Origin: Spirogloea muscicola
Taxonomy: Eukaryota > Streptophyta > Zygnematophyceae > Spirogloeales > Spirogloeaceae
Length of the DNA: 39,552 nt
Direction of reading: 5' to 3'
NCBI GenBank assembly: GCA_009602725.1
Contig: WELB01000018.1
Coordinates: forward strand, 309,176-348,727
The stretch's first letter is position 1. Every line of letters begins with the position of its first letter. Made by a program: the position numbers and the translations under genes. Below are positions 12,597-39,552 of this stretch, one piece after another. The notes beneath the pieces are model-generated. The model made no database searches and was not told the origin of the DNA. It worked only from the letters and a program-made list of their open reading frames with translations.

Positions 12597-12709
12597 CTGA
12601 CCTTTCTTGACGTTGTACGTACTGAGGCTCTCAAAGCCACCGCAGCTTCCGGCAAGAAGAAGCAGCGTCCGGGCTGGTCTGTCGGATTTGAGGCTCCTCA
12701 CTCGTAACT
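12597..12709 (+). pseudogene. Fragment of a retrotransposon endonuclease (copy G)
   Basis: Reads TFLDVVRTEALKA... to a stop after WSVGFEAPHS. The LDVVxTEAxK core resembles the second catalytic Asp region of the RLE domain in the partial copy at 39312-39552 (LVDVVVTEAYKSS) and in element E (LLDVVTTDAF). It is followed at 12780-12850 by a hairpin tail in the same orientation, as expected for the 3' end of an element. The match is short, so confidence is modest. Confidence 0.45.
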
Positions 12710-12779
12710 ACTGAGTGGTCCGTCCTTCCCCCGTACTGCCATACAGTAGCTTCTTCAGGCCCCTTCGTAGCTGCTAAGC

Positions 12780-12850
12780 GTTTTTTGGCCCCTTCGAATC
12801 TTTGTCAATTCTTTAGGGCTGGCTTTTCACAGCCCTTGCCCTGAGCTTCC
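12780..12850 (+). repeat. Hairpin-tail repeat
   Basis: GGCCCCTTCGAATCTTTGTC then AATTCTTTAGGGCTGGCTTT then TCACAGCCC: the sense-oriented tail with its hairpin (GGGCTG...CAGCCC). It probably belongs to fragment G upstream and directly precedes the first recognisable part of copy A at 12889. Confidence 0.65.
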
Positions 12851-12938
12851 CTAGTATGTTGTCGTGGTTGGTAGAGTAGAGGAGTCCTTCCTCCTTTTGC
12901 CCCACCAGTTCGGCGCGGGGCTACGGAGCGGCGGAGAG

Positions 12939-13201
12939 AAGGCGCGCGGGGCGCATGAATTGAAAGGGAGGCCAATTCAAGCCAATACATTGTTCAGGCA
13001 GGGTCGAGTGCAGACTAAACAATGCTACATAATACGGAGACCTAATCTAAGGTACCTAAGATGACATTAGTACCCACGGGTGAGCACAAACAAATCTGAC
13101 AAGCTAGATTGGGGAGCTGGAGCGCCGCCACGAAAGCCGGAGGCCTGACTTAGAGCGCGCCCTGCACGTTGATGAAGAGCCAATGCTTGCGAGCGCTGCA
13201 A
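12939..13201 (-). mobile_element. Nested antisense retrotransposon 3' end (copy B)
   Basis: 263-bp insertion inside the RT frame of copy A. It is flanked by the direct repeat GGCGGAGAG (12930-12938 and 13202-13210), a target-site duplication. Read on the minus strand it begins with TTGCAGCGCTCGCAAGCA, corresponding to the LQRSLAxAxH region of the element C-terminus. It passes GTGCTCACCCGTGGGTACTAA, matching the element's terminal LLTRGY-stop region, and ends in a short 3' UTR finishing GCGCGCCTT. The same 3' UTR end is found in copy D at 20065-20110. Removing the insertion restores the RT frame of copy A. Confidence 0.85.
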
Positions 13202-15315
13202 GGCGGAGAGGTGGTCGTGCACGGCGTACGGGCCGCCTTGGACCTGAACCCCGGCTGGATGGCCTTGGCGGTGGATGTCAGGAATGCTTACAACAGCGCA
13301 GACCGAGATGTCATCGCAGAGGAGTTGAGGGCGGCCTTCCCCAGCCTCCTACCCTTCTTCAGGCTGGGCTATGGTCAGCCAAGCGACCTGCTGTGGCGTA
13401 CAGGGCACGGAGGGGTGGAGGTCCTGCAATCCTCCACAGGCGCGCGCCAAGGGGATCCACTGGCCGCGCTGTACTACGCGTTGGCCCACAACCGGGCGCT
13501 GCTGGCCACGGTCGCGGCTCACCCCGGGGTCCTCGCCCCCACGTACGCTGACGACACAACGCTGGTGGGGCCGCCAGACGACGTCGTGGCAGCCTTTGCT
13601 ACCCTGGAGGGGCAGTTGGGCGCCATCGGCCTGGGCATCCGCGCTGCCAAGTGTAGTGCTTGGGCTCCACAGGTCCTGCCTGCCCACCTGCGGTTGCCCA
13701 CGGGCTGCCAGACACCTGATGGGGGCTTCACCCTCCTCGGCGCCCCCATCGGTTCCCCAGCCTTCGCGGTGGAGCAGCTCCAGGCCTTACTGCTGGAGCA
13801 CCTCCGGCCGGCGGACCCTCTCCACACACTGCAAGACATGCAGTTGGCGACGGCGATGCTGACCAGGTGCATTGCCCAGCGCCCGCACTACTTGGCCCGC
13901 GTCCTCCCTCCCTCCCAGGCGGTGAAGGCGGCGTACGCGGCGTTTGACTCCGGCATCCTGGCCAGCGCTGCCGCTCTCCTACAGCACCCCGACTTCCTTA
14001 CCACGCCAGCCGCGCTGCTCCAAGCCAGCCTGTCTGTTAGTCGCGGCGGTCTGGGCTGCCGCCCAGTCGCCCGCGCCTGCGAGGCCGCCTATTTGGGCTG
14101 CTGGGCACAGGTTGCCGCACCCATCAGCCAGCGGTTCCAAGCTCACGGCATCCGCACCTTGGAGCGGGCGGTGGCTGAGGTGGAGAGCGGCTCGCTGCCC
14201 TTCCAGGAGGCCCTCCGCGCTGCCCGCGACGGGCTCCTGGCGGCCCACCCCGACATGTCGCAGCAGGTTGTTCCGTTCATCCACCTGGCGCACACCCCCG
14301 ACCCGCGGGCCCAGGCCCGCTGCAATGCGCTCGTGGACAAAGCGGCCTACGACCAGGTGGCGGAGCTCCTTCCGCCACCTGTTAACACCTGTATGCATCT
14401 GGCTGGCATTTCACAGCCGATTCTTTCATATCAGCAGCCGCTTCCGCCGCAAGACAGTCGCGGGCGCGCCAGGCTGCTCTCAGCCTCCTCCCCCAGGGCG
14501 GCGGCGTGGGTATCCGCGCCCCCCATCTACGCGGCCCTCACAATGCCCGATGCAGTCTACAGGACGGCGGTGCAGCGGCTTCTCGGCCTCCTCCCCCCCC
14601 TGCCTCGTCGGTATCACGCAATGCGAGTGCGGTGCCCGCCACGCTGACCCTGCGACGCTGGCGGCCCATATGCTTCGTTGTGCCCACGGCGGCGAGCGGA
14701 CCGGATCCCATGCCTGCTCAGGGACGGCATGCAAGGCGTCTCCCTCGAGGCTGGTTAGAAGGTGGCCGTGGAGCACTCGTCAATAATGCCATCCTGGGCG
14801 ACGACGACGGCCGGATCCACACCCGGCGCGCTGACCTCGTCGCCATCCCGCCCGGTGGCGGTCCGCGCATCATCGCGGATGTGGTGACCGCCGACTGTGT
14901 CGACTCCGCTAACCCCTCCAAGTCGGCGACGACCGCTGGGCATGCGGTCGCTCTGGCGGCCCGCGGCAAAGAACGGAAATATGCAGACCACCCGCCTGCC
15001 GACGAATTCGCAGCCCTGGCCATCGATGTCCACGGGGCCTATGGCCGTGGCTGGCTGGACCTTCTCCAGCGGCTTGCCCGGCAGGCCATCGAGCGGCGGC
15101 CGGGTCTGCCAAGGGGGCTGCCCGGCTTCAACGCGGCCGGCTCCCTGGCCCAGGTTTTCCGAATGCGGCTCTCCGTGTCCCTCCAACGCTCCCTCGCCTA
15201 TGCCGTCCACTCGCGTGCGGGCCGCGCTATCGCGGCTGCTTCTGGGTCGCGTCTGGATGCTTCTTTTCCTGCGTGGAGCTACTCCGACCTGATGTTGCTC
15301 ACCCGGGGGTATTGA
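13202..15315 (+). pseudogene. RT-zinc-RLE polyprotein of copy A, frameshifted
   Basis: Reverse transcriptase with motif A (ALAVDVRNAYNSADR), motif B (ARQGDPLAALYYALAHNRA), the catalytic TYADDTTLVG and FTLLGAPIGSP, all intact in the frame that is open from 13169 to 14647. A slip in a C8 run near 14595 moves the frame. The zinc knuckle CECGARH...HMLRC then lies in the frame ending at 14786, and a further indel plus an in-frame TAG near 14755 separates it from the endonuclease part (RRADLVAIPPGGGPRIIADV, ERKYADHPPADEF), which is read to the TGA at 15313. Compared with element E it carries an extra 54 nt at 14381-14434 bounded by GT and AG. Not functional as read. The N-terminal half of the protein is missing. 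Confidence 0.85.
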
Positions 15316-15820
15316 GCTTCCTGTGATTTCGTCGTGTCTCATTCTCTCGCTGCCTAGCTGTGTGTTTTTTGTTTTTTCCGGCTTTTGACATTGTCCATTC
15401 TTTCTGGGCTGGCTTTGCTGGCCCCCTTTCTCTATGGGCGCGCACTTCCTTCCTCGGCATCTCATTCTTCGGCTTTGGACATTGTCCATTCTTTTTGGGC
15501 TGGCTTTGCCAGCCCCTCTTTCCCTATGGGCGAGCCTTCTTTCTTTGCCCGCATTGGGAGTGCCACTTCTTTTTGGGCTGGCTTTGCCAGCCACTCTTCT
15601 CTATGGGCGAGCACTCCTCACTTCTTAACCACAGCCACCAGCCTAATCTGGCCGCTCTGTCGGGTTTCTGCTTTGATCTCTGAGAGTCCCCTTGCTGCCG
15701 TCTTGGCACTTACTACCGTGCTTTCTGCTCCATCCGGCTCCTTCAGACTTTGTCCATTCCTTTGGGCTGGCCTCTCACAGCCACCAGTCAATTTGGCCGC
15801 GCTTTCTTTCTAAAGCATCG
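15316..15820 (+). repeat. Hairpin-rich 3' tail of copy A
   Basis: Starts directly after the ORF stop. Contains four spaced copies of a unit of the form TTGTCCATTCTTT-GGGCTGGC-TTT-GCCAGCCCC...TATGGGCGAG, with hairpins at about 15406-15424, 15497-15515 (perfect 8-bp stem, 3-nt loop), 15575-15592 and 15765-15783. Spacing of the first units is about 91 and 78 bases. The same units occur, in both orientations, at many other sites in the window. Confidence 0.85.
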
Positions 15821-17493
15821 GAGAACCCACGCCGTCTGTGCCTGGCTGGCAACAACCCACGCGGAGCACGAAAAGGGAGAGGCACCACAAGGATCACTTC
15901 GGAGGAGACCACTTCTGACCGTGCGCTATGAACGTCTTACGACAGCTTCGGCAAGCGGCAACCTATGTTTATCTCTCCTCCAGGATCTGGCTAAGGTGGT
16001 TGACACCGTCGTGGTAGTGGGGGGGGCAAGCTTGGGGCATGCTAGCAGTCCGCAGGCGTTGTTTGCATGCTTCGAAATGTAGCTATTGCTATTCTCAGCG
16101 ATTGTTCATCAGCCGCTGAGCCGTGAGAGGGGTGGCTGTGGAAGGTTAGCCCATCAGAGGTAGACAAAGTAAGGGGTGGAGAAAATGCCACAAGATCGCT
16201 AACTCCTGTTCGGATACCAGCCTTTGAGGGCAGATGTGTAGGACCTTGCTCCCACACACTTAGTCATTCGACCTTCGGCTTGGATGAGCCTTGATCGCTG
16301 CTGCTGTTTCCTACTCTCGAGAACTGGCCTCTTAGAGCCACCATCTTCTGCCAAATAGCAGTTCCTTCTACCCTCGCGTCCCAGCTCCTCCATAAGAGCA
16401 CCACTCTCTGTCGCCCAACCCCCCGTGACAAATCCCACCTCCCAACAACGTGCGCCGCTGCCAGACCTGGCTCCTTTAGTTGCCCTACGCCGGGCTAACA
16501 TGAATGTGTCACGCTGTCCTCTACCACCTTCATTTTCCTGCTCAACAATCTTCAACGTACTTCACACGCATGACCCCCTTGGAGGAGGTCCGCATCCATT
16601 TGCCCACACTTACAGCCGCAGGCTCCGATCGCAAAGTGATACTACACATGATCGGCGTGAGTGCTGCTCTCGCTGCCCGATTGGCCATCCTTTCTCTAGT
16701 TGGCGCCTTCTTTCTGCAAAATGTGATCCTCCACCATCAGCCCAGCCATCAAGTGAAGGACATGAACAGTAAGACCATTGTCCATGATCCATACCGGACC
16801 TCAAAATGTCCACCGTCTTGCCGCTTCTCCATCAGATTGATTTCCTGTATATTTCAGCTTCACAGATCACTCAGCCGCCTTTTGCCTGCCTGCCATCCAC
16901 CTTTTTGACTAGTCCAGCAGGTGGTGCCGCACCTTCACAGCCTTTGCTGGTGTGATTGCAAATGGCGGCGCGTAGTATTCGAATCCTCTCAAACCTGCTA
17001 CGTGTACTTTGCAAGCCTCGCCTTTGCTAATGTGATGTCCCACCAGATGAGCCTCCTGTCAAATATGGTCAAGCTCACAAGATCGTTTGCTCCCGCAACA
17101 TATTGAGAAGCCAAGCACGTCAACAGTCCCAACACGAATACTGAGCAACCTGCAATACATAGACAATAGCAACTAATGGTTGTGAGGTAAATTTCTTCCT
17201 TGTACTTGAGCACGAGAATCAAAACGATTCATCCAGCAGTATGCCAATCTTTGGTCTCGGGCGACAGTTGAGGAGGCAGATACAAGTTCTTGCAACGCGG
17301 AAAGCAGTTGAGAAGGGTCTCTTGACAGTGAACCTCAAGTGAAGGACTGAAGCTTCTTGACGAGTTCCAGCAGAGGGCCTCATGTTATTTCTCATGTATA
17401 GTAGTCCTGCTCATGTACGGGACCTGCTTCGAAGATATGTGCAACCTGCTGGCTGTGCACCCAATCCTCAGCTGCCCAGCAACGGTGCAACTC
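15821..17493. other. Intergenic, 1.7 kb
   Basis: Between the tail of copy A and the stop codon of the ASC-1-like gene. Frames of up to about 130 codons occur on both strands (for example 16504-16908 plus), but none shows a motif, a plausible splice pattern or a family I recognise. No RNA gene was seen. Confidence 0.4.
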
Positions 17494-18881: not shown

Positions 18882-19019
18882 CTGCCAAACGAACGATCAG
18901 ATTGCATGCTTCAATAAAGTGGAGCTCTACATTACTTCCAGTCTAAGGTTTCAAAGTCAGGCTCACCCGTTTCCTTCTGGCGAAAGACAGTCCTGATTGA
19001 GGCAGAAAGGGGGGGGGGG
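18882..19019. other. Upstream flank of the ASC-1-like gene
   Basis: Ends in a run of 13 G's with an undetermined base at 19023, at the boundary to retroelement sequence. Such a run beside an N often marks an assembly or sequencing difficulty. Confidence 0.4.
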
Positions 19020-19085
19020 GCGNCTGCTTCCGGGTCTCGCCCGGCTGCATCTTTTCCAGCCTCGAGCTACTCTGACCTGATGAAG
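19020..19085 (+). mobile_element. Retrotransposon C-terminal scrap (copy C, sense part)
   Basis: About 64 bases matching the last coding stretch of copy A (CTGCTTCnGGGTC...GAGCTACTCnGACCTGATG, compare 15236-15295). It breaks off exactly at GACCTGATG and is followed by antisense tail sequence. Confidence 0.75.
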
Positions 19086-19345
19086 AGGGGCTGGCAAAGC
19101 CAACCCAAAAAGAATGGACAATGTTCAAAGCCAAAGAAAGAGGTGCTGAAAAAGGACTACACTACAAAGTGCAAGATGGTGCAGAGGAGCCCTGCCGATC
19201 GAAGATGAGCTCGCCCATAGAAGAGAGGGGCTGGCAGAAGCCAGCCAAAAAAGAATGGACAATATCCAAAGAGCTCCAACACTAGCTAGGCATCTAGACA
19301 ACTAGACATGACGGAACCACACGAAGTTCAATACCCGCGGGTGAG
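19086..19345 (-). mobile_element. Inverted 3' tail of copy C
   Basis: Read on the minus strand it starts GATGTTGCTCACCCGCGGGTATTGA, matching the last codons and stop of copy A. It then follows copy A's tail in order (CTTCGTGTGG, TGCCTAGCT, ATTGTCCATTCTTTT) and ends after two hairpin units near 19205-19265 and 19085-19135. It begins with the four bases GATG at which the neighbouring sense fragment stops, so the two halves look like one element whose 3' part has been inverted. Confidence 0.75.
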
Positions 19346-19500
19346 CAACATCAATGGGCGAGCACCTTCTTCTTTCCTGGAGTTGATGCAGTCGGCGGGG
19401 GCAACGTCGACTGAATGAAGGCGCGGCGCGCGAGGAGAAAGTGCTCGCCCATTGAGAGTAGGGGCTGGAACAACCAGCCCGAAAAAGAGGAGACGGCCAC
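19343..19500 (-). repeat. Hairpin-tail unit and local inverted repeat
   Basis: The unit GAAAGTGCTCGCCCATTGAG, then AGTAGGGGCTGGAACAACCAGCCC at 19437-19487, is the antisense tail repeat, nearly identical to 32586-32632 and 38668-38712. CAATGGGCGAGCACCTTCTTC at 19343-19363 is its reverse complement, so the ~75 bases between (19365-19430) are bounded by inverted repeats. Confidence 0.65.
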
Positions 19501-19737
19501 TCGCCCCAACTTTGACAGGATGGAGTAACCGCTTTCTCTCGTCTGTACTTTTACTGTAGTGCGCACCGCCGTTGTAAGAGCCTCACAATGCGAACTTTGT
19601 TCGAAGTCTGGCTCATTGCAGCTTTTATTTTGATTTGGCCGCGCTTTGAACTACCGGCTGGCCGATCACAGTTGTACCCCCGATGGGCAGGCCCGCCTCG
19701 CGCCGGTCGGGCCTCCGTCGCCGCCGCCCGCCGCCGC

Positions 19738-19801
19738 CATGGCCGCTGGCGCCGCTTGCGGCGGGCTGCTGGGCCTGGCTGGCCTGCAGGCGCGCGCGAG
19801 G
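19738..19801 (+). CDS. Possible orphan first exon
   Basis: In a GC-rich island an ATG at 19738 in a GCCGCCGCC context opens MAAGAACGGLLGLAGLQARAR and meets a good donor (GAG|GTGAGA) at 19802. I found no second exon before the following repeats. It could be the displaced or truncated start of a gene broken by retroelements, or chance in GC-rich DNA. Confidence 0.2.
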
Positions 19802-19948
19802 TGAGACGCGGGGTTCGACGCCGCGGCAGAAAGCGGCGCAGCAACTGGGGACCGTGGTGCACGTCGAGGTCGCTAACTGACGCCCGAATACCGAACGGCA
19901 AGTGGGATGCAAGCTCATCCAACGAGGGCGAGGGCTGAAGAAAGAGAG

Positions 19949-20062
19949 AAAATGCGTGTATATTAAGAGATGGGGAGGCCATGTGTGGCCAAGTACAAAG
20001 GCAAGCACATTGGACAAATGTACGTCACCTGCTGCTAAGCTGACCCGCTCAGTAACCACGAA
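19949..20062 (+). repeat. Dispersed repeat 'R2', longest copy
   Basis: Runs from AATGCGTGTATATTAAGAGA through GGCCAAGTACAAAGGCAAGC to TGACCCGCTCAGTAACC. The first part recurs at 7507-7545. The last two motifs recur in reverse complement at 38902-38972 (GGTTACTGAGCGGGTCA and GCTTGCCTTTGTACTTGGCC). Confidence 0.65.
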
Positions 20063-20064
20063 GA

Positions 20065-20505
20065 GAGAAGGCGCGCGGTGCGCATGAAATTGAATGGGAG
20101 GCAAATTCTAGCCTTACAAATGTCATTTTAACTGGGTAATGAGCTGGCCAAGGGGGACACTAATATCCCCGAGTGAGCACATGCATATCTGACAAGCTAT
20201 ACTGAGGAGCCGAACCACCACCACGGAAGCCATTAGCCTGGGCTAATGCACGACCAGCACGCTGGTGAAATCGCGAGTGCTTGGGAGCGCTGCAGACTCA
20301 ATGATAGCCTCATCCTGTAGCATGCAACGATGGCTTGTGGGACGCTAGAATGGCCTAAGCTACCCGCCCGACTACGTCGGCGGGCATCAACATGCAGTGC
20401 CAGGCGATGGAGGAGGGCAGACCACTTCGTTCCGTAGCCGCCGTAGATGTCCATGGCGCATGGGAAGAAGTGGTAAAAGAATGGACAATGGTTCGAAGGG
20501 GCCAA
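20065..20505 (-). mobile_element. Retrotransposon C-terminal fragment (copy D)
   Basis: Minus-strand frame 20505-20233 encodes AMDIYGGYGTKWSALLHRLA...MRLSLSLQRSQALA, a diverged version of the C-terminus of copy A (AIDVHGAYGRGWLDLLQRLA...MRLSVSLQRSLAYA). A degraded TGTGCTCACTCGGGGATATT region and a 3' UTR follow, ending CCGCGCGCCTT at 20066, the same end as nested copy B. It is truncated on its 5' side exactly where hairpin-tail sequence of the same orientation starts. Confidence 0.8.
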
Positions 20506-20790
20506 ATGACGGAGGGGCCTAGAAGAGCAAGCAAGCGCGGCCAGATTGACTGGTGGCTGGGAGAGGCCAGCCCAAAGGAGTGGACAAGGTCTGAAGAAGG
20601 CGGAGTGCTAAGGATTAAGACCTCAGCAATGAGACTCTCAGTAACCTCTTGTCAAGCGCTAAAGCACGAAGCAGCTACGAAGGGGCCCGAAGATGCTATG
20701 TCAGAATGGGGGGAGGATGGGCTGAAGAAGCCAGCCCGAAAAGACTGGACAAGGTCAGAAGCCGGAAAGCGCTGAAACACAGTAAACGAG
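20506..20790 (-). repeat. Stacked hairpin tails upstream of copy D
   Basis: On the minus strand two tail-like segments follow each other. One (about 20790-20660) has the hairpin GGGCTGGCTTCTTCAGCCC. The second starts at AGAGGTTACTGAG (about 20655, the sequence at the ORF stop of element E) and contains GGGCTGGCCTCTCCCAGCC. The part 20520-20600 is the reverse complement of 15745-15810 of copy A's tail with few changes. These are 3' ends of severely truncated elements, placed head to tail with copy D. Confidence 0.7.
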
Positions 20791-28527: not shown

Positions 28528-29582
28528 TATTCAAAGGTGAACACTCCAGCTCTTGTCAAACTCCGTGGCACACTTCCTTATTCTACTAGCATGGGTCAAG
28601 ATTGCAAGCAAGGATGGCATGCACAAACATCTCTTGATGAAGCCATGGCCTTTTCAGGCGAATGGAGAGCAGCAGAACTGCTTCCACTGTCCACTTTCTT
28701 TGAGGATACATGGCAGCTATTGGCTCCAAAGGGATCATAAGGCCAGGATGCAATACACATGGTTAGCATGATTGCAACTGCATCATGTATGAAATCATGA
28801 CAGCAGGCAGATCTTCATATGTATGTGCATGGATCCACGTGCCCTGTGCCCAATGAGACCTTCTCGCCCTGCTTCGTCTTTGATGCAAGCACAGTCATCT
28901 GCATGTGTTGTCGTTCTACCAAGATGAGACTGATGCATGCATGCAAAGCTCGTGTACCACTTCAACGTGGTGGCCAAGCTCATGTACCCCGCCCATAGGT
29001 CCTCTGGGCTTGCACAGGACTGGGCTCTGGGCTGTAAATCTCCAAGCGAAGGCTCTTTCATGAGGTTGGCTGTGAAAGGCCATCCCGAAATGACGGACAA
29101 AATCTAAGCCCAACACGAGCGCAAACTACACAGCAGTACACCTGGCTACCGTTAATAGCGACGTTAGTAAGCCTAGTTGACAGTCGCAAATTGGAATGAC
29201 TAGTAGCAGCTCTTCCAACAGCGAAAGGCCCGCGGTGCACTAGAAGAATAAGCGAGGCCAAGCTGAGCCAACACACCGTTAAGATGAAAGCAAAGGTAGT
29301 AAAGGAGGCTGGCCGTCGGAGGAGGCCACCGCCAATGACCTGAAGCGGCAGCCAAGGCACAGTCACCACGAAGATGCTAGGCGAAAGCTTATGATAGTCG
29401 CAAAATGCAAAACAATAGGCTCTTCCGAAGGCGATGGCTGTGCCGAGTAGTGCGCTGTGGGAGCAATGGTGGCGAGGAGGGCTTTCCATGACAATTCTAA
29501 ACCCCTCAAATCCATGAACAAATATATAATACAAAGGACAAGGTCTGCTGGGGCCCGGGAAGCAAGACTCTTCCAGTAGATG
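28528..29582. other. Intergenic, 1 kb
   Basis: Between U11/U12-65K and element E. Contains a decayed antisense hairpin unit at 29060-29105 (GGCTGTGAAAGGCCATCCCG then ACGGACAAAATC). The rest has no recognisable gene. Confidence 0.45.
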
Positions 29583-29630
29583 GCTGTGATTGGCCAGCCC
29601 AGACAAAAGATGAACAAAGGAGGGGCAATG
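29583..29630 (+). repeat. Left ~48-bp direct repeat flanking element E
   Basis: GGCTGTGATTGGCCAGCCC, then AGACAAAAGATGAACAAAG, then a purine-rich end GGGGCAATGAG. It matches 32668-32717 with a few substitutions and a 2-bp length difference, and the similarity stops abruptly on both sides. The repeat itself is an antisense hairpin-tail unit. Confidence 0.75.
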
Positions 29631-29638
29631 AGGAAGAA

Positions 29639-32350
29639 GTGGCACTCCAAAAAAGAAGTGGTACTCCCAATGGGGGCGGGCACTGGGAGGAGCTCCTGGC
29701 CAGGCACGACGCAGCCGTGGCGGCGTCCGCGGCCAACCGTGGTGGCCGAGGGGCAACACACGCCCGGGCCGCCAGCGTCCGCAGGGCTCTTCGCTACGGC
29801 CACGCGGGTGAGCTCTCCCGGGCGGTGCAGGCCCTGGACGATGCGATGCTGGCGCCGACCAGTGCGGCCACTCGGGCGGCCCTGGACTCCCTCCACCCCC
29901 CGGCCAGCTCCTCCCTGCCACCGTGGTTGGCCGCGTTCACCCCGCCGGAGGCGGTGGTCTTGGAAGCCGACGCCCTCAAGAAGGCTCTCCAGACCAGCCG
30001 TCGCGCAGCCGCCGGCGGTCCCTCCCGCATGCTCACTGAGCACCTGCGGGAGATCTTCCTCGAGGGCGAGGCGGCGGACTTCAACGCGCTGCTGCAGATC
30101 TGCCAGCACCTGGCCAGGGACAATGTGCCGGCCAGCATCCGTGGCGTCCTGTGCGCCAGCACGCTGCTCGCCCTCGACAAGCCGAGCGGGGGGGTCAGAC
30201 CCATTGCCATTGGGGAGGTCCTGTACCGCCTGGTGAGTCGCGTACTCTGGCAGCAGCATGCGGGGCCGGCGCAGGTGCACATGGCGCCACACCAGTACGG
30301 CGCGGGGCTGCGGAGTGGGGGTGAGGCCGTCGTCCACGGGGTCCGTGCAACCTTGGACCAGCACCCGAGCTGGCTGGTGCTTGCCGTCGACGTGGCAAAC
30401 GCCTTCAACACCGTGGAGCGCGCCTGCATTGCGGAGGAGCTCCGGGCCTCCTTCCCCTCCCTGGTCCCCTTTTTCCGCTTGGGGTACGGTCAGCCCAGCG
30501 ACCTCCTCTGGTGGACAGGGGGTGATCAGGTGGAGGTCCTGCAGTCCCGCTCGGGCACGCGGCAAGGGGACCCCCTCGCCGGCTTCTTCTTTGCGCTCGC
30601 GCACAACCGGGCTCTGCAGGCTACCGCTGCGGCCCACCCAGGAGTCCTTCTTCCCACCTACGCGGACGACACCACCATCGTCGGCCCTCCGGAAGACGTG
30701 GCGGCGGCCTTCGTTACTTTCACGCAGCAGCTGGCCACCCTCGGCCTGACCATCCGGCCGGCGAAGTGCGCGGCTTGGTCCCCTGGCGTGATCCTACCCA
30801 CCCTGGCGCTGCCCCCGGGCTGCCGGACTCCGGCAGACGGCTTCACCCTCCTGGGAGTCCCCATCGGCACGCCAGCCTTCGTGGAGGGGCAGCTGCGAGC
30901 CCGCCTCGTGGAGCACCTTCAGCCCGCGGCCCGGCTCCCCGAGCTGGAGGATATGCAGCTGTCCTTGGCCATGCTGACCAAGGCCATCGGGCAGCGGCCC
31001 CAGTACTTGACGCGGGCCACCCCGCCGTCCCCAGAGGCATTGGCGGCGTACGCGACTTTCGACGCGGGCATGGTGGCGAGCTTGGCGGCCCTGGTCCGCC
31101 ACCAGGGCTTCCCCCAGTCGCCAGCCGCTATCCACCAGGCGGCGCTACCCATCAGCCACGGGGGTCTCGGCCTGCGCCCGCTCGTCCGCTCATGCCGGGC
31201 TGCATACCTCGGCAGCTGGGCGCAGACTGCCGCCTCCGTGGCTCAGCGCTTCATGGTCCATGGCCGGCGTGCACTGGAGCAGGCGGTGGTGGAGGTGGAC
31301 AAAGGCGCGCTGCCGTTCCAGGTGGCGCTTCGCACCGCCCACCAGGAGCTGCTCGCGGCGCACCCCGACATGGCCGGCCAGGCGGTCTCCTTTGCGCACC
31401 TCGCGCACACCGCTGACCTGCGCGTCCAAGCGCGCTTCGCGGCCGTCGTCGACAAGGCCGCCTACACCACCGCCGTGCTGCAGCTTCCTGAGGCTGACCT
31501 GCGCGGGCGCGCGAGACTACATTCGGCCTCCTCCCCGGGGGCAGCGGCGTGGCTCCAGGCACTCCCCATCACTGACGCCCTGACCCTCCCAGATGAGGTG
31601 TTTCGCACTGCCGTCCACCGGCTCCTGGGGCTGCCGCCTCCATGCCTCCAGGGCGTGCGTCAATGCCAGTGTGGCGAGCGAGGGGCCAAGCCTGGCGAGC
31701 TGGCTGCTCACGTCCTGCGCTGTTCCCATGGCGGCGAGAGGACGGCGGCCCACGACCGCCTCCGGGACGCGATGCACAGCATCCTGGTGGAGGCTGGCTT
31801 CGCGGTGGCAGCGGAGCACTCCGGCGTCATGCCGCTCCAGGCCAGGGCCGACGGTCTCCACGCTCGTCGCGTCGACCTGGTGGCCACCCCACAGGCCGGC
31901 GGGCCACGTCTGCTTCTGGATGTGGTGACTACCGACGCATTTGACCGCTCCCACCCAGCCCAGTCTGCCACCAAGGCTGGGTATGCGGTCGCCTGCGCCG
32001 CTCGGGCAAAAGAGATCAAGTACGCCGACCATCCACCGGAAGACGAGTTCTTCCCGTTGGCAATTGACATCCATGGGGCACTGGGCGCTCGGTGGCTTGA
32101 GCTACTTAACCAGCTCGCCCGCCACGCAATCGCCCGTCGCTTCCATGGTGAACCGGTAGACTTTCCTGCAGCCGGGTCGCTGGCGCAAGTGTATCGCATG
32201 CGCTTGGCCGTCTCGCTGCAGAGGTCCATGGCCCGTGCGCTGCACCTTCGTGCCGGGAGAGCCCTCGCTGCTGCCTCTGGCTCTGTCCAGGGGACCCACT
32301 TCCAGGACCCTAGCCTCTCTGATTTGCGGCTGCTTAGCAGGGGTTACTGA
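29639..32350 (+). CDS. Reverse transcriptase-zinc-knuckle-RLE protein of element E
   Basis: Uninterrupted frame of 903 codons from a GTG at 29639; the first ATG is at 29846 (codon 70), so the true start is unknown and probably lost upstream. RT runs from about residues 110 to 440: RPIAIGEVLYRLVSR, then motif A VLAVDVANAFNTVER, motif B GTRQGDPLAGFFFALAHNRA, the catalytic TYADDTTIVG, and FTLLGVPIGTP. A long thumb/linker follows. Near residue 680 is the knuckle CQCGERG...HVLRC. The endonuclease shows RRVDLVATPQAGGPRLLLDV (Asp-x14-Asp), AKEIKYADHP (Lys) and LAIDIHGALG. The protein presumably nicks DNA and primes reverse transcription from the nick. All catalytic residues look present, unlike copy A, which argues for a recent insertion. 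The strand opposite has long chance frames only. Confidence 0.9.
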   Translation: MALQKRSGTPNGGGHWEELLARHDAAVAASAANRGGRGATHARAASVRRALRYGHAGELSRAVQALDDAMLAPTSAATRAALDSLHPPASSSLPPWLAAFTPPEAVVLEADALKKALQTSRRAAAGGPSRMLTEHLREIFLEGEAADFNALLQICQHLARDNVPASIRGVLCASTLLALDKPSGGVRPIAIGEVLYRLVSRVLWQQHAGPAQVHMAPHQYGAGLRSGGEAVVHGVRATLDQHPSWLVLAVDVANAFNTVERACIAEELRASFPSLVPFFRLGYGQPSDLLWWTGGDQVEVLQSRSGTRQGDPLAGFFFALAHNRALQATAAAHPGVLLPTYADDTTIVGPPEDVAAAFVTFTQQLATLGLTIRPAKCAAWSPGVILPTLALPPGCRTPADGFTLLGVPIGTPAFVEGQLRARLVEHLQPAARLPELEDMQLSLAMLTKAIGQRPQYLTRATPPSPEALAAYATFDAGMVASLAALVRHQGFPQSPAAIHQAALPISHGGLGLRPLVRSCRAAYLGSWAQTAASVAQRFMVHGRRALEQAVVEVDKGALPFQVALRTAHQELLAAHPDMAGQAVSFAHLAHTADLRVQARFAAVVDKAAYTTAVLQLPEADLRGRARLHSASSPGAAAWLQALPITDALTLPDEVFRTAVHRLLGLPPPCLQGVRQCQCGERGAKPGELAAHVLRCSHGGERTAAHDRLRDAMHSILVEAGFAVAAEHSGVMPLQARADGLHARRVDLVATPQAGGPRLLLDVVTTDAFDRSHPAQSATKAGYAVACAARAKEIKYADHPPEDEFFPLAIDIHGALGARWLELLNQLARHAIARRFHGEPVDFPAAGSLAQVYRMRLAVSLQRSMARALHLRAGRALAAASGSVQGTHFQDPSLSDLRLLSRGY

Positions 32351-32667
32351 GTAATTTGTAGCTGCTTTCTTTCTTTGTGTGCTTTGGTTTCTTAGCGCTT
32401 CCTCTGGCTTCCTCTGGCCCCCTTCTCGTTCTTTGTTCATTCTTTTTTGGGCTGGCTTGTCCAGCCCCTATCCTCAATGGGCGAGCCCTTTCTTTTCAAT
32501 GGGGGCAAGGGCTGCGAAAAGCCAGCCCAAAAGAATTGACAAAGGTTCGAAGGGGGCCTAAGAGCGTTGAGCAGCTACAAAGAAGAAAGTGCTCGCCCAT
32601 TGAGAATAGGGGCTGGAACAACCAGCCCGAAAAGGGGCCTGAGGGTGCGATCCAAGTGGGGGCAAGG
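32351..32667 (+). repeat. 3' tail of element E with hairpins in both orientations
   Basis: After the stop the sense tail contains CTTTGTTCATTC and TTTGGGCTGGC-TTGT-CCAGCCCC followed by CAATGGGCGAGC (32430-32492). From 32505 on the same unit appears in antisense: GGGCTGCGAAAAGCCAGCCC (32513-32532) and GAAGAAAGTGCTCGCCCATT with GGGGCTGG-AACAA-CCAGCCC (32583-32632). The point of inversion is about 32500. Confidence 0.75.
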
Positions 32668-32717
32668 GCTGTGAGTGGCCAGCCCAGACGAAAGATGAAC
32701 AAAGAGAGGGGGCAATG
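32668..32717 (+). repeat. Right ~50-bp direct repeat flanking element E
   Basis: GGCTGTGAGTGGCCAGCCC, then AGACGAAAGATGAACAAAG, then a purine-rich end GGGGGCAATGAG. It is the partner of 29583-29630. It is followed directly by TGTCGACTAACG and the GC-rich upstream region of the EF-hand gene. Confidence 0.75.
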
Positions 32718-33207
32718 AGTGTCGACTAACGGGGAGCGAGGGTTGACGGCGGCCCGCCAGCTGACGGCCGCCAAGCTCCGCCGGGCCCCGTCAAGAGGGT
32801 GACAGGGGGGGGAGGACCCGCGGAACCCCCTCCCCCCTCCGCGAACCCGTCTTCCTCCCTCCACGTGCCTGCCGACCGTCGCTCGGGCGCCCGGCAACCC
32901 CCCTCCTCCCCCCCCCCCCTCTCAGCTTCCTGTCGCCGCCCTCCTGGCCCATAGCCGTCGTGCTTGCGCCATTGCCGCCGCCGCCGACGCCGCAGCCTCC
33001 GGAGCCTTGATGCGAGGAGCGATGGCCGCGGAGGCCCGGCTCTGGCGTCTGGCGCCGGTCGGCGGCCGCTGGCGGCCGCTTCGCCAGCTCCTGCTCACGG
33101 CCCCCTAGCACGAGGCCTGCCATCCAGAGCGCTGTGCTGGCTGCAGGCCTGGCCTCACCCGAGCGGGGGAGACGGCCGTTGAGCAGGCGTCGTCCTTGTC
33201 GGCCGCC
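32718..33207. promoter_or_regulatory. GC-rich upstream region of the EF-hand/TPR gene
   Basis: About 490 bases of GC-rich DNA with G8 and C8-C10 runs, between the right repeat of element E and the start codon. An upstream ATG at 33010 opens 32 codons and stops at 33106, so it is at best a short upstream ORF. Element E therefore sits less than 0.5 kb from this start codon. Confidence 0.4.
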
Positions 33208-36200
33208 ATGACGGTCACCAATGGCGACTTCATGCCTTCGAGCATGCGCGACCGCAAGATTGCGCGCATCTTCCAGCAGTTTGACGCCAATAGCGACGGC
33301 AGCCTCAACCGCGAGGAGATGTCGGCGCTCGTCGTGGCCGTCAACCCCAACGTCAAGTTCACCGAGGACCAAATCTCCGCCATCCTGGACGAGGTCTTCC
33401 GAACTTATGGACCATATATCGACGATGACAATGGCCTCTCGCTCGCGGGCCTTCGCCAGACATACGACGACGGCGCAGGCGATGTCAACCGAGACTTTGA
33501 CGCCCTGAAGCTGAACGTCGATGGTGAGAGCTCTATCCTAGCAAGCCGGAGGAGCAGCACAATGGCGATACATGTCAGTAGGTCAATCAGTGCAGCGGCC
33601 TGGGCCCAGTGAGCAGTAAGCAACGGGGATGCAAGGGCGGCCATGACGGCATATTGACACGCGGAGCGTGCCAAAGCGTGCCTGCACTTCATTGTAGCCG
33701 CCTACTGTGTGCGAAGCTGGCTCTCAGCTGCGATGAGAGAGCAGGGTTGCTGTAGCAGCCTTTCCATGCTGAGTCAAGCATTCTCCTCATGGGATAAGAC
33801 AGTAAAGGCATTAACTTGTGTCTGGCCTGCTTGCTTGCACCGTGGACAGACATCCCAGCTCACATTCCCGGCCTCAATGGGACTCTCGCACCTGGTCTTC
33901 CTGCCGTGGTGGATGCAAGAGGGGCTGGCGCTGATGGGCCGCACTTCGAGACCACATGGCGGCTCTTAGAGGATCTCGAGATCATTCTAAAGCGCCACGA
34001 GGTTGCCATGTACGTTCCTGCACGACCGTGCTGCCGTTCTGGCTTTCCTTCTCAAGCACTCTAGGCTGCTCTTATTCTTAGGGTAGCTGAGGGGCCACCT
34101 TGGCGGCAGCTCTCGCAAGTAGATTGTGATTTCCAGCACTCTGGAAATCCGGGGGAGTCTATGTAAGGCAGTCTCAGAGACATTGCTCCAGAGCACATTG
34201 CAGTGCCGGGATGCAACAGCATGATAATGGCCTGCTGCTGCGCTACTGGACTGCTGGGTACACTGCTTATTTGGCTTCGAAAATCATGCCTGCACAGCTC
34301 GAGCTGCACGATGTAGGTGAAGTATCAGACAGTGTTGAGAAATTGACGATGTTCCAGGATGGTCACAGGCCGGCCGAGAATGCACATGGACACGATGCCG
34401 TGGATCTCCAACCTCGAACGATAGCCTACACCCCAGTCTTGGCGAAGGAGCTTGCACCTCTTCGTGCTCGTGCAGATGGAGCCGCTTCTACAGGTGCTTT
34501 ATGGTCTCATCAATGTCGAAAGCATGGCAGCTGGGTCACAAGGACTAGAGTGTGCAAGCTCTGGAGTTACCTCTCACTGCCCTTGTTATACCATGTTCAG
34601 AAGCTGCATTCGAGGGCCACATGGCAATGGGAAAGATCCTGGATGACAGGGGACTCCCCCAAGAGGCCCTTCTCAGCTTCCAGAGGGCTCAGCGGCTCAT
34701 GCCAGGGGACGCTCGGGCTCACTTCAGGGCAGGTAACGCCCTCTTCTCCTGTGACAAAGTTGGAGAAGCCAAGGTGGCCTACCAGCGAGCGCTAGATACA
34801 GGCAGGGAACAACCTCACCTTTATGCAGGGATCATTCCACAGGTGGGTGTGGCTTAGACTTCAGAGCCTCTTCCATTTACCACGTCCTGTTATTTTCCTG
34901 TGCATGTACTTTACATCTGCCACAGATCTGCAGTTGGACTGGCAGGCTTATTATATTTACTCCTTTTTGGTTAGGAGCTTGAAGACATGCTAAGACATGC
35001 ATGCCGGCTCAACGGATAGTTTCATTTTGCCAACAGTGCGTCCATCTTCTGCATTGCAAGCCAGGTTTATGTAAATATGGGCATAGTGCTAGAGACAGAG
35101 GGCATGCTAGCCAACGCCTGTGAGCAGTACCAAGAGGCTGCCATCCTGTCGCCCCAACATCATCGGGCACTCAAGCTGCTTGGCAGTGCTCAATTTGGCC
35201 TTGGAGATTATCGAGCAGCTGAGCAATCTCTCCAGCATGCCCTCTATCTTGAGGTCAGCATCTCAGGCTTCCTACTTACAACAACCTCTTCCATGCATAT
35301 GCTCTGTGTCACCTCACAAGAGGCAGATTGCTTACTCTATCAGTGCACTATCATGCATTTCATTGTAGGAAATGTGTGCTTCTTTGGAAGTTCCTTGAAT
35401 TGCTGGCAGCTCATGCTTGCCTAGCCCACTGCAGAAAGCTGCCTAGTTGAGCTGTACTCAGGGTGAAGTGGTGTTTTGCAGCCAACCTTTGCAGATGCTC
35501 ACTGCGACCTGGGCTCCACGTTGCACGCTCTCGGGGATACAGAACGAGCTAGAGAGGAGTTTGAGCAGGCTAATGAGCTCCAGCCTGTCCATCTAGACGC
35601 CATGTACAACCTCGGGCAGGTGTACAGGTGTGTTCCAGCAGTCGAGGTGCTGAAAGCTTGGTCTATTGGGCGTTTCCAGCATCTACTTTGATTTGCTTCA
35701 AAGCTGATATGGCACCATGCACTTCGAGAAGCTGCTCATGGTCAAGGTGATTGTGTTCTTGAGTGGTGCATTACCCTGCTCTGTGCAGCGACAACGGGAA
35801 CTACATCGCAGCTGCAGATGCATACAACAGGGTCCTTGCTAGGCAGCCAGACAACTGGAAAGCAGAGCTGAATAGGGCAGTGGCTTTGTTAGGTGCTGGT
35901 CGGGTAGAGGAGTCTCATACTTCATTTCAGGTCCATAATTCCTCCTCTCCCATACAGTGCAAGATGGCATCGATTCAGATATGTTGGTCTCTTCTAGCTC
36001 AACATGCATGTCTCTTTGTGCAAGGCATGTGCACTTTCGTGATGTATCTCTCCTTGTTGCACATGCAGTCAGCTTTCCAGATGACCGACAGAGTGGAGCT
36101 ATACGACGCAATCCAGCAGCTGAAGCGAGCCTCAAAGAAGAACAAGGCGCTATCCTCTATGCTGAACAGGCAGGTTACGGAGGCCTGTAGTAGCCTCTCC

Positions 36201-37924
36201 AGTGGTGGCCTTACTGTTGATGAACTTTGCTTGGACTGTTGTGAGCTGCAAAGTAGTGCATTGCTGCGCTAGACAATCAAAGGTCTGTAGTTTGCATCCA
36301 GATTTCGCACTTGTATCTTCAGGATTGTCTTTTCCATTGGAGTTAACAGCTTGCTTGGTGCAGTGTCCCAGATGCATCTCCCACGGGTTCAGAGGCTGAG
36401 CGCCAACAGAGACGAGCAACGGAGTCTACCTCTGTTGTAGTTGATCTATCTAGAATGAAGCAGACCTCTGCTGAAACCACGCCACCGAAGGAACTTGGAG
36501 CCGCCTTAGATGTTCGCAGTTTTCAGGTGCAACATCTACACAATTGTTGTTAAGATGCGGGCAGCTTCCTTACATCTGGAAGGCAGTCGCAGTGGCTAGT
36601 GGCAAGCGAAATTGCTGCTTCATCATCTGATTGTATCAGTTAAGCATCATATGCTGTTGCTGACTGTTTGTTGTAAGTCATGCATCTGCTGCAGAAGCAA
36701 ACACGACTGCACACAGTGTTAGCGGAAGCTGTAAATGGTGGGCTGCAGAGCCACAGTCTGACACCATCATCCGACAGAATGCTGAACAAGGCCTCCATGG
36801 AGAAAATATGTAGAGCTCTTTTGCCAAAGTTGAGTCCACAGGTCTTCCAACAGGCCATGCGGGCCTTGAATGTCCGTATATTTGCACTTCTGGATGACAA
36901 AAGGTAGGTCTTCTGTCTCCACAACCCACAACACTGTTGCATGGACTGCTTACCTTCTGCTCATTTATTAAGCTTAGTTGTGGGGTACTATGCACTCCTT
37001 CTGGGAGCAACTTGTTATCTTGCTTAGAGTCTTGCTTGCTCAAAGTACGATGCGTAGAGTTTGTGCCTAAAGGCGTGAGCGTTGCTGAGAGGCATGAGCA
37101 TTGTCATCAACTCACACCCCCTCCGCCACAAATAAATCCCCCTCTTATATTATATAGCAGAATCACATGGATGTATATATACTCTTACACTTCAATTACA
37201 AACTGCTCATCCCTCAAGCTCGGTTGTTGCTAAAGTGGCAGTGGCAAGTTGGACCTTGGGATGTTTCTGGCAATCATTGCCCCTCTATGCTCTGGCACTC
37301 CTGAGCAGCGGAAGCAGTGTGCGTTCAACGCTCTGTCTTGGAATGTCGGCAGGGCCTCTGGTGTGCTAGGCCTACCAGCTGCCAAGGCTTATTTTCAGCT
37401 TCTCCGTCAAGTTTACCTTGCAATCCAGCACGACCAAATTCTCGACCTGCCCAGCAGCCCTAACGAGGACATCAACGTCATCTCTTTTGCTGCCTTTGAC
37501 GAACGCTTCAGCCAAGCATTCCCAATCCTGCCTATTCTTATCAAGCTGGAGGAAGATGACAGGTAGACACAGAATATGATGCATTGGCTCTAACATTCTG
37601 CTCACAGTTTCCTGCTCAAGTTGCGACTTGTGCTGGTAGACATGAGCAGGTATGTTAGTTTGCTAAATGATATTAGTCAATCATAGTGTCTTATCTGTGG
37701 GTTCTTGCAGGGTGAGACATGGAAGGCAATCATGTGCCGTCTGCTCGCATCCAATTGTTGGGTTGCGATACAAAGAAATTTCCGCAGGCTTCAGCATCTG
37801 CAGCCATTGTTACAGCGAAGGAAGGGTTCCGAGCATCCCTCAAAGAGATGACTATCTCTTCAAGGAGTATAGCAGGGCTGAATCGTTTCTGTATTTTGGC
37901 ATGGCCAGAGAGTCACGGCAATAA
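33208..37924 (+). CDS. EF-hand, TPR and ZZ-type zinc-finger protein (At1g05150-like)
   Basis: Plant/algal protein of unknown role, presumably a calcium-responsive TPR scaffold. Exons: 33208-33523, 33850-34001, 34298-34493, 34601-34842, 35065-35253, 35482-35627, 35789-35930, 36069-36169, 36364-36526, 36695-36903, 37242-37562, 37711-37924 (796 aa, close to the ~800 of the plant family). A canonical EF-hand loop lies at residues 26-37 (DANSDGSLNREE), followed by a degenerate second one (DDDNGLSLAGL, YDDGAGDVNRDFDAL). At least six TPR units follow (GHMAMGKILDDRGLPQEALL, AHFRAGNALF, ALKLLGSAQFGLGDYRAAEQ, AHCDLGSTLHALGDTERA, AMYNLGQVY, AELNRAVALLGAGR). SGKLDLGMFLAIIAPLCSG begins a conserved helical block, and the last exon has CAVC...CSHC, a ZZ-like zinc site. 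Intron 8 only keeps frame with a GC donor (ACAG|GCAGGT). The exon 2/3 junction is the least certain. Confidence 0.92.
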
Positions 37925-38570
37925 TGGTTCTCTGAGGATGAGCTGTAATAGCTTTGTGCCTGTCCAATCCTTGTAGTGGATAATAAAGGCCACTTGCATG
38001 GTGAGCCACCCATGGGTCTTTCAAATGAGCCAATTGGCTCATTGAAAGGACCAATTAGCTGTGTCTCTGCCTGAGTCTGGCATCCTTTCCAAGACGGAGC
38101 TGCTGGTGGTGGGCTGGAGGTGCCTATGGCTGCAGCGTGTGTATGCAAGTAAGTAGAACGTTGTCATCAGGTTATTTGTCTCCATAACGTTTGTGCACTA
38201 GCAATCAAGGTGACCTTTGTCTACTCTGACTTATCCGAGTCTCATTCTCTCTAGTGAGCCCCTTGAGTCTCTGGTGCCTCATTGTCCATTCTGGTAATCA
38301 AAAGAGCATTTTGCAACAATCCCCAGTCTCTCAAGATTGATGTGAGTGATTGGTAGCATCTCCTACTTGGATGAATAAGTGAATAGCAGCTAATTTGGTC
38401 AAAGGGCAGAAATCGTGTGCTGCTGATGCATGTGCTTCAATGTCCTGAAAGCGTCCATAAGCTACAGCTTCACATGCAATTTTCATTAAGCTTCTAACAC
38501 TGACGCGGGGCTGAAGTTGGAGCTGCCAGACTGAAAGGCCCTCATTTGTATTACCTAGCAACTGTGAATG
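37925..38570. other. 3' flank of the EF-hand/TPR gene
   Basis: Contains the presumed 3' untranslated region and the palindrome at 38025-38042, listed separately. Otherwise no gene, RNA or repeat that I recognise. Confidence 0.45.
38013..38048. repeat. Near-perfect palindrome
   Basis: The 18-bp perfect palindrome ATGAGCCAATTGGCTCAT (38025-38042) extends outward as TTTCAA / TGAAA with one extra A on the left. It lies about 100 bases after the stop codon of the EF-hand/TPR gene and could form a hairpin in the 3' UTR. Confidence 0.7.
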
Positions 38571-38815
38571 AAGAAGTGAGCTCTTCCAGAGGGAGCGATG
38601 TTTGTGAAAAGCCAGCCCAAGAAGCGATTGATGAGGTCCAAAGGGGCCCAAGAGGCTGCAAAAGAAGAAAGTGCTCGCCCATTGAGGATAGGGGCTGGAA
38701 AAGCCAGCCCAAAAGAATGAACAAAGTACGAGAAGGGGGCTAGGGGAAGCGCTAAGAATGACAAGCACAAAAAGATATAAGCAGCTGCGAATCACTCAGT
38801 AACCCCTGCGAGCGA
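38571..38815 (-). mobile_element. Solo 3' end of an element-E-type retrotransposon
   Basis: Read on the minus strand it starts GCAGGGGTTACTGAGT, which is the sequence around the stop codon of element E (32340-32354). It follows E's tail in order: AGCTGCTT, TGTGCTT, TTCTTAGCGCTTCC, GCCCCCTTCTCGT, CTTTGTTCATTC and the hairpin GGGCTGGC-TTT-TCCAGCCCC. A second hairpin unit lies at 38605-38650. It is a copy truncated to the stop codon plus tail. Confidence 0.85.
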
Positions 38816-38879
38816 GCGAACTCTGGTGGGTGGCAGAAGGGCTTCTTATCCGACATCTAGTATTCAGGCATCGATTGGC

Positions 38880-39005
38880 GACCTTAATGTTTTTGACCCG
38901 CGGTTACTGAGCGGGTCATTCTGCTGTAGGTTATATAGATCTTAGATGTGCTTGCCTTTGTACTTGGCCATTTGGCCTTCGTTTGTCTAAATACACGAAT
39001 CCGTA
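38880..39005 (-). repeat. Dispersed repeat 'R2', diverged antisense copy
   Basis: GGTTACTGAGCGGGTCA (38906-38922) and GCTTGCCTTTGTACTTGGCC (38951-38970), followed by TCTAAATACACGAATCC, are the reverse complement of motifs in the copy at 19949-20062, in the same relative order and spacing. Confidence 0.6.
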
Positions 39006-39024
39006 TCCCTGCTAAGCAGCCGCA

Positions 39025-39115
39025 CCCATTGGAAGTGCCACTTCTTCTTCTAAGCAGCCGCAAAAGGCCAGCCCGGAGAGGAGGGACAAGGTCCGAAGGG
39101 GCCTGAGGGCCGGGT
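39025..39115 (-). repeat. Hairpin-tail fragments before copy F
   Basis: CATTGGAAGTGCCACTTCTTC (39027-39047, sense-tail motif also at 15554-15572) is followed by AAAAGGCCAGCCCGGAGAGG, AGGGACAAGGTCCGAAGGGG and CCTGAGGGCC, the antisense tail unit. About 200 bases later copy F begins. Confidence 0.6.
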
Positions 39116-39311
39116 TACACCGGGGCGGTCGGCCACACACGTTTTGACCGCCGGGTCAAGGGGGTGGCCGCTGCCACGGAGGCCGAGGCCGCCTGAACGT
39201 GCGGAATCGCCCCCCAAGCCCCGCCAGGTCGGACTGGCTGCCCGGCGCGCTAGGGCAGCAGCTCCAAATTTCAGCTGGCCTCTCCCAGCCGCCGCCCTCT
39301 CTGGTGCGGGC

Positions 39312-39552
39312 TTGATGCGCGACGCCGGCTACCGCGCCATCGTTGAAGTGAGCAATGTAATGCCCATCACCACGGATTCCCAGGGAGGCCATCACCGTCG
39401 CACCCTGGACATTGTGGGTGTACAACCTGGCGGAGGCCCACGAGCTTTGGTTGATGTGGTGGTGACTGAGGCATACAAGAGTTCCGCTTCCACACACATT
39501 GCTGGCCACGCAGTGGGAGGTGCTGAGCAGAAAAAGCTCCGACACTACTCAG
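39312..39552 (+). mobile_element. RLE endonuclease fragment of another retrotransposon (copy F, runs off window)
   Basis: An 80-codon open frame from TTG 39312 to the window end encodes a restriction-like endonuclease segment: LMRDAGYRAIVEVSNVMPI, then HHRRTLDIVGVQPGGGPRAL, VDVVVTEAYKSSAS and GAEQKKLRHYS. It aligns with element E (EAGFAVAAEHSGVMPL, RRVDLVATPQAGGPRLLL, DVVTTDAF, AKEIKYADH). It keeps the Asp/Asp/Lys pattern but is clearly a different subfamily (Thr-Glu-Ala instead of Thr-Asp-Ala, Lys-Lys-Leu-Arg). The RT part is absent upstream, so it is 5'-truncated. Confidence 0.75.

What the first reader, a model, noticed from the sequence alone, without database searches (positions are those of the whole stretch)
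12597..39552. Elements sit in or against each other's tails: possible self-targeting RLE retrotransposon
Copy A follows the tail of fragment G. Copy D abuts two tails in its own orientation. Element E is bracketed by tail units. Copy F follows tail units. Copy B sits inside A. RLE-type LINEs are usually sequence-specific, so the simplest reading is that the hairpin tail is itself a preferred target, building chains of 5'-truncated copies like an outward-growing array. This would be an unusual genome-protective strategy for a LINE.
Basis: inference. Interest (0 to 1): 0.75.

Follow-up and report, generated by a model that had tools for sequence, protein, structure and literature searches.

The report
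Jumping gene lands near own tails
A crowded family of jumping genes often sits inside or against its own relatives' tails, mostly because such DNA is where insertions collect, but also because the tail's last letters match the short sequence it prefers to insert at.

Summary
The tail-to-element adjacencies are real, but mostly not tail targeting. The window holds several families of an R2-like LINE whose 3' ends share a hairpin (28,112 exact genome matches; 15 in the reversed control). I read 126 family-E insertions in the same genome. Copies are mostly tiny 5'-truncated pieces (median 144 nt) with short target duplications (7 bases or more in 27 of 74 young copies, 4.8 expected). Their flanks match related loci far above background (young E 100/153 windows; background 18/220). 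An unrelated copia element does the same (10/17), so the regional clustering is not E-specific. Two finer signals remain. A same-strand tail end lies just upstream of the 5' junction in 13 of 108 insertions (2.5 expected; antisense 2). A motif learned away from tail ends ranks E's own terminus, GAGCC^CTTTCTT, 1st of 2,809 positions, or 7th under another nick rule. A second hotspot, in another family's 3'UTR, abuts E-type tails 41 times in matching and 5 in reverse orientation. Self-targeting is partly supported; genome protection was not tested. Zepp and CNL1 are precedents.

The parts
29678..32497 (+). Element E, 5'-truncated copy of the R2-like LINE, between its target duplications
   Evidence: Duplication found; alignment limits of genome copies; RVT_1 E 6.4e-18 on the frame 29639-32350
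29669..29677 (+). Left copy of E's 9-bp target duplication AATGGGGGC
32498..32506 (+). Right copy of E's target duplication
31664..32350 (+). C-terminal part of E's frame: C-X1-C-X12-H-X3-C cluster and RLE-like RRVDLV...LDVVT stretch
   Evidence: RLE identity by motif only
32449..32466 (+). Hairpin of E's tail, GGGCTGGCTTGTCCAGCC
   Evidence: pattern genome-wide
32475..32494 (+). E's 3' terminus CAATGGGCGAGCCCTTTCTT, which also matches the preferred target
   Evidence: 987 exact genome matches, 0 in control; rank 1 or 7 of 2,809
32507..32582 (-). Downstream part of the antisense F2-type copy that E and an E-type tail piece interrupt
29633..29668 (-). Other half of the same antisense F2-type tail, left of E
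   Evidence: joined flanks
32583..32634 (-). Short E-type tail piece (GAGCACTTTCTT end) sitting in the F2 3'UTR hotspot
   Evidence: window sequence; its place is among the 41 (C18:341745-341773)
29582..29632 (-). Tail of a further family, left of E
   Evidence: 92% match to 32667-32719
32667..32719 (-). Second copy of that tail, right of E
12597..12845 (+). Fragment G: C-terminal end, 3'UTR and hairpin tail (hairpin 12816-12834) of an F2-type copy
12899..15447 (+). Copy A (diverged relative of E), split by the J piece, with its first tail unit
12939..13201 (-). J-family 3' piece inserted into A, duplication GGCGGAGAG on both sides
15448..15805 (+). Further same-strand tail units after A (hairpins 15497, 15575, 15764)
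19083..19488 (-). Antisense tail units
   Evidence: one strict minus hairpin at 19463
20163..20538 (-). Copy D, C-terminal piece, with same-strand hairpins upstream at 20555 and 20720
38584..38809 (-). Antisense E-type 3' end and tail (hairpin 38693)
39312..39551 (+). Copy F, cut by the window end

Best explanation
This is a multi-family, R2-like non-LTR retrotransposon clade that copies itself by target-primed reverse transcription from its 3' end. The families share a short 3' hairpin, probably the signal by which the protein picks its RNA (inferred). First-strand synthesis usually stops early, so most copies are 3' pieces of tens to a few hundred bases. The nuclease has a loose preference for a G+C-rich stretch followed by a pyrimidine run, roughly GCC^CTTT. 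E's own 3' terminus (GAGCC^CTTTCTT) is about the best match in the whole element, so every insertion leaves a fresh preferred site at its end. About one insertion in eight uses a same-strand tail end, and other matching sites, such as one in a relative's 3'UTR, are hotspots too. Most of the remaining nesting arises because this DNA is where insertions of any kind persist.
For: Shown: hairpin 28,112 versus 15; uniform 3' end, 987 versus 0; median copy length 144 nt in 118 of 126 copies whose 5' end was in the locus; duplications of 7 or more in 27 of 74 against 4.8 from permuted partners; same-strand tail end 3-18 nt upstream in 13 of 108 against 2.5, antisense 2; E's own motif alone 8 against 1.1; motif from 21 non-tail-end sites ranks the terminus 1st or 7th of 2,809, with 0.04% or 0.1% of background positions scoring as high; F2 3'UTR hotspot 41 versus 5 antisense and 5 at another F2 site, out of 4,291 E-type ends; copia control 10 of 17 against background 18 of 220, P 1e-6, and against young E 100 of 153, P 0.60. 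Reverse transcriptase: RVT_1 E 6.4e-18; nearest solved relatives R2 proteins, E 1.5e-5. Inferred: role of the hairpin, the nick order, the nuclease type.
Against: The five tail-end motifs were written after I had read the first set's empty sites. In the second, later set (40 sites) E's motif gives 2 against 0.45, P 0.076, a trend only. One of the 13 hits (L132) looks like coding sequence rather than a tail. Near pairs of E-type tail ends show no significant orientation bias. The motif rests on 21-22 sites, and tail and target share CTT, so nick positions are ambiguous. In one search the first base after the tail is C or T in 76 of 79 young copies, which may partly be ragged tail ends rather than target. 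The window's own E has a duplication AATGGGGGC that does not fit the motif. Only family E was tested.
Confidence: 0.66

Rival explanations
1. Haven only: insertions survive only in gene-poor, element-rich DNA, so nesting follows without any preference for tails.
For: An unrelated copia element has flanks in the same kind of DNA as often as E does (10 of 17 near windows, 10 of 17 far; 7 of 10 insertions on at least one side). Young E near and far windows are alike (100 of 153 and 92 of 137).
Against: It predicts no strand-specific excess at one point of the tail (13 of 108 against 2.5, antisense 2) and no oriented hotspot in a relative's 3'UTR (41 against 5).
Confidence: 0.19
2. Strong self-targeting: the tail is recognised as such, by sequence or structure, and is the main target, building outward chains.
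For: Tail-end excess; in the window, chains of same-strand tails after A.
Against: About seven in eight insertions are elsewhere; insertions fall in coding parts, 3'UTRs, hairpin loops, antisense tails and apparently unrelated DNA; the copia control; no significant orientation bias of close tail pairs.
Confidence: 0.08
3. Template jumping: the reverse transcriptase runs off one RNA and onto the 3' end of another, so tail-then-truncated-copy pairs enter in one event.
For: L016 holds two E-type pieces head to tail inside one pair of similar flanks (TGTTGTGCGCAG; sequence). R2 reverse transcriptase is known for end-to-end jumping (title cited in PMC2881922 and PMC12222951, passages seen).
Against: Several hosts of tail-end insertions belong to other families or are visibly older than the inserted copy (L032, L043, L080, L103), and J in A and E in the window have their own duplications. 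Jumping does not explain the 3'UTR hotspot.
Confidence: 0.05
4. Tandem or segmental duplication made the adjacent tails.
For: Not excluded for single pairs such as 29582-29632 and 32667-32719 (92%).
Against: Neighbouring pieces are of different families, lengths and truncation points, with duplications of their own; Tandem Repeats Finder reports no array of tail units in the window.
Confidence: 0.02

Closest known systems
Zepp and ZeppL of green algae (L1-type LINE)
   Same: Nested insertion that targets existing copies and leaves arrays made mostly of 3' ends through frequent 5' truncation, as described in PMC8226300 (passages) and PMC3446292 (passages)
   Different: Zepp is an L1 element clustered once per chromosome at centromeres or ends; here the protein is R2-like, tails carry a hairpin, copies are dispersed over the listed contigs, and only about one insertion in eight is at a tail end. 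The original Zepp papers were not held
CNL1 of Cryptococcus neoformans (R2 superfamily)
   Same: R2-superfamily element said to insert preferentially into copies of itself, 5'-truncated copies, duplications of 0-13 bp (PMC12810828, passages)
   Different: Subtelomeric arrays beside telomeric repeats; its duplications contain CACCCCT, not CTTT; its own target is described there as undefined
R2 and non-site-specific R2-like and HERO elements
   Same: Single open frame with N-terminal zinc fingers, reverse transcriptase, C-terminal zinc cluster and nuclease; 5' truncation (PMC5678591, PMC7650587, PMC4640811; passages)
   Different: R2 enters one 28S rRNA site; no hairpin-tail self-target is mentioned in the passages seen; the zinc-cluster spacing here differs from the one given for RLE LINEs

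Membership tests
Non-LTR retrotransposon (LINE) | Reverse transcriptase of the RVT_1 family | tested here: met
   E 6.4e-18 over residues 180-408; A 1e-6, just under the cut-off
Non-LTR retrotransposon (LINE) | Uniform 3' end, variable 5' truncation, short variable target duplications | tested here: met
RLE-type (R2 superfamily) LINE | Restriction-like endonuclease domain C-terminal to the reverse transcriptase | tested here: inconclusive
   Conserved D131 and D146 in a 3-row alignment resemble the motif (resemblance recalled); no PDB profile hit; model too poor to search (pLDDT 42.9); Pfam shows only RVT_1
[quoted passage not shown]
   E reads C-X1-C-X12-H-X3-C, as does a frame of another family in L143; spacing rule from PMC5678591
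RLE-type (R2 superfamily) LINE | Reverse transcriptase nearest to R2 | tested here: inconclusive
   The 3 PDB sequences matched at E up to 1 are R2 proteins, best E 1.5e-5; no tree with other LINE clades was built
RLE-type (R2 superfamily) LINE | N-terminal zinc fingers in a single open frame | tested here: inconclusive
   L143 frame 1882-3201 has two C-X2-C...H...C stretches; zf-C2H2 E 0.01, under the cut-off
Zepp-like (L1) LINE | L1-type reverse transcriptase with apurinic endonuclease and centromeric or terminal clustering | tested here: not met
   No endonuclease family other than RVT_1 in E and none in the N-terminal 440 residues of L143; tail ends spread over the listed contigs (first 100 places each)

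The most novel reading that the evidence does not exclude
The element carries its own target: its 3' terminus has evolved to be the best available match to its nuclease's site, so each insertion, however short, plants a new preferred landing place with the same polarity. The dense fields of tens-of-bases tail pieces would then be a self-seeding sink that draws later insertions of the whole clade away from genes.
Probability: 0.22. Interest if true: 0.68.

Novelty: new variant of a known kind. Interest (0 to 1): 0.45.

Why it matters
Elements that insert into themselves (Zepp, CNL1) are known, but how the target is chosen is stated as unresolved for CNL1 (PMC12810828). Here the preferred motif can be learned from sites away from tail ends and still points to the element's own terminus, so 'the tail is the target' becomes a directly testable sequence hypothesis. 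The copia control is a caution: in element-rich genomes, nesting alone says little about targeting.

Tried and rejected
Rejected: regional nesting as proof of self-targeting, because of the copia control. Its first count (10 of 14) left out three 3' flanks that my script had misfiled as 'region' and counted some region windows twice; the recount is 10 of 17 near and 10 of 17 far. Rejected: a directional outward chain, since close tail pairs show no significant orientation bias. Led nowhere: structure of E's C-terminal part (pLDDT 42.9; I made no fold search with it), PDB profile (0 hits), NCBIfam (only a group II intron RT model far below its cut-off). The strict-hairpin count near insertions (22 of 75 with any hairpin within 120 bp) was too insensitive to settle the matter. 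The first target motif (22 sites) could be biased because copies with CTT pass the length filter more easily; one search repeats it with matched bases counted only outside the element. Not done: tree of reverse transcriptases, other families' junctions, host identification, covariation of the hairpin.

Rows dropped: of the first 100 places, 84 insertions were analysed; 42 more came from the list, giving 126 (79 young). The tail-end test used 108, leaving out three extra copies at L013, copies with under 160 bases upstream, and copies with runs of N. One search used 112 and found 11 same-strand ends within 10 nt of the inferred nick, 3 antisense.
Full report
What is there. E's frame matches RVT_1 (E 6.4e-18), and the only PDB sequences matched at E up to 1 are R2 proteins (best E 1.5e-5). 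E is truncated: other copies continue upstream, two of them (L143, L146) sharing 1,226 bp at 99.9%, which gives an element of at least about 3.9 kb, with a frame that begins at L143:1882 and carries two possible zinc fingers.

Anatomy of the tail. The 3' end of E, CAATGGGCGAGCCCTTTCTT, occurs 987 times exactly, never reversed; a 55-base terminal match marks 385 young ends. The hairpin pattern shared across families occurs 28,112 times against 15. Copies are short: in 118 of 126 insertions whose 5' end lay in the locus, the median is 144 nt, 44 are under 100 nt and 107 under 300 nt. Pieces as short as 39 nt can carry a good duplication (L078, TTTGTACTTG).

Insertion process. In 74 young copies, duplications of 7 bases or more occur 27 times, against 4.8 expected when flanks are swapped among copies. 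They range up to 18 bases and often begin CTT, overlapping the tail's last CTT; some copies have 1-4 extra bases between tail end and duplication, so ends are ragged. This is what target-primed reverse transcription with early stops would leave (established for LINEs; inferred here).

Is it more than a crowded neighbourhood? Windows of 120 bp beside young E copies match other sampled related loci in 100 of 153 cases, and further out in 92 of 137; older copies 68 of 87 and 51 of 80; twenty fixed positions give 18 of 220 windows. This looks like targeting until one takes an unrelated element. RVT_2 elements exist in the genome (155 matches); one family has 15 exact LTR starts. Its flanks match the same library in 10 of 17 near and 10 of 17 far windows, and 7 of 10 insertions do so on at least one side (the first count was incomplete). 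The difference from young E is not significant (P 0.60); that from background is (P 1e-6). The library was made of E loci and the window, so it is biased towards whatever surrounds E, equally for all queries. Conclusion: most nesting needs no self-targeting.

What the haven does not explain. Measured from the 5' junction, without using duplications, a same-strand tail end lies 3-18 nt upstream in 13 of 108 insertions; the density further upstream predicts 2.5 (P about 2e-6); antisense ends there number 2. E's own motif alone gives 8 against 1.1 (P 2.4e-5) and 0 antisense; split by set, 6 against 0.68 in the first (68 sites) and 2 against 0.45 in the second (40 sites, P 0.076). The motifs were written after reading the first set, so the second is the fairer test and is only a trend. 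L010, L032, L043, L080, L103 and L134 show it plainly: a complete hairpin tail, its last pyrimidines, then the new copy.

Why the tail end. A weight matrix from 21 young sites away from tail ends, chosen by bases matched outside the element, ranks the terminus GAGCC^CTTTCTT 1st of 2,809 positions of E when the nick is put before the shared CTT, and 7th when it is put after; 0.04% and 0.1% of fixed-background positions score as high. Other sites follow the same rule. Three sampled insertions (L013-2659, L101, L136) hit the same place in the 3'UTR of family F2, CAGGCCC^CTTTGTAGC. Genome-wide, E-type tail ends abut that place 41 times in matching orientation and 5 times in reverse, and another F2 site 5 times, out of 4,291 E-type ends. 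A tail followed by what looks like a truncated F2 copy is thus often an F2 copy split at its hotspot; the window has one at 32583.

The window's own cases. E entered an antisense F2-type tail with a 9-bp duplication; J entered A's coding frame with a 9-bp duplication. Neither is a same-strand tail-end hit. A's neighbourhood does hold a run of same-strand tails (15385-15805).

Known relatives. Zepp is described as inserting into existing copies to give arrays of 3' ends (PMC8226300, passages; PMC3446292, passages), and CNL1, in the R2 superfamily, as inserting preferentially into itself with its specificity undefined (PMC12810828, passages). So self-insertion is known in both endonuclease groups. 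What differs here is the dispersed, weak form, the shared hairpin and the match between terminus and target. In 8 answered literature searches (listings only, apart from the passages named) I saw no description of this clade; that is not proof of absence. Membership in the RLE group is likely but not shown: the nuclease was not recognised by any search, and the zinc-cluster spacing, C-X1-C-X12-H-X3-C, does not fit the published rule CX2-3CX7-8HX4C.

Verdict. Tail ends are one favoured site, used in about one insertion in eight, because they look like the target. Strong tail targeting is not supported, and protection of the genome was not tested.

Noticed in passing
L078 (C8:48837-49756) and L058: Insertions of only 39 and 42 nt of E's 3' end with duplications of 10 and 9 bases: retrotransposed scraps hardly longer than the hairpin tail.
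   Followed up: partly
L016 (C2:1026793-1028913): Two E-type tail pieces head to tail within one pair of similar flanks (TGTTGTGCGCAG), as template jumping would give.
   Followed up: no
window 31664 onwards; L143 612-1739 minus frame: Zinc cluster spaced C-X1-C-X12-H-X3-C in two families, unlike the spacing published for RLE LINEs; possibly a mark of this clade.
   Followed up: partly
window 12939-13201; L062, L014, L057: Family J ends in GCGCGCCTTCTC without the GGGCTGGC hairpin, so the hairpin is not universal in the clade.
   Followed up: no
L034, L120, L140 (near 1035): Insertions into the hairpin loop of another tail (GGCTGG^CTTTTCGCAGCC-like), a further possible hotspot.
   Followed up: no
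L148 (C97:140200-148200): A young copia element with identical 426-bp LTRs sits between stretches of the R2-like clade.
   Followed up: yes
L069: At least 60 A residues directly upstream of a 107-nt E copy, in the same strand.
   Followed up: no
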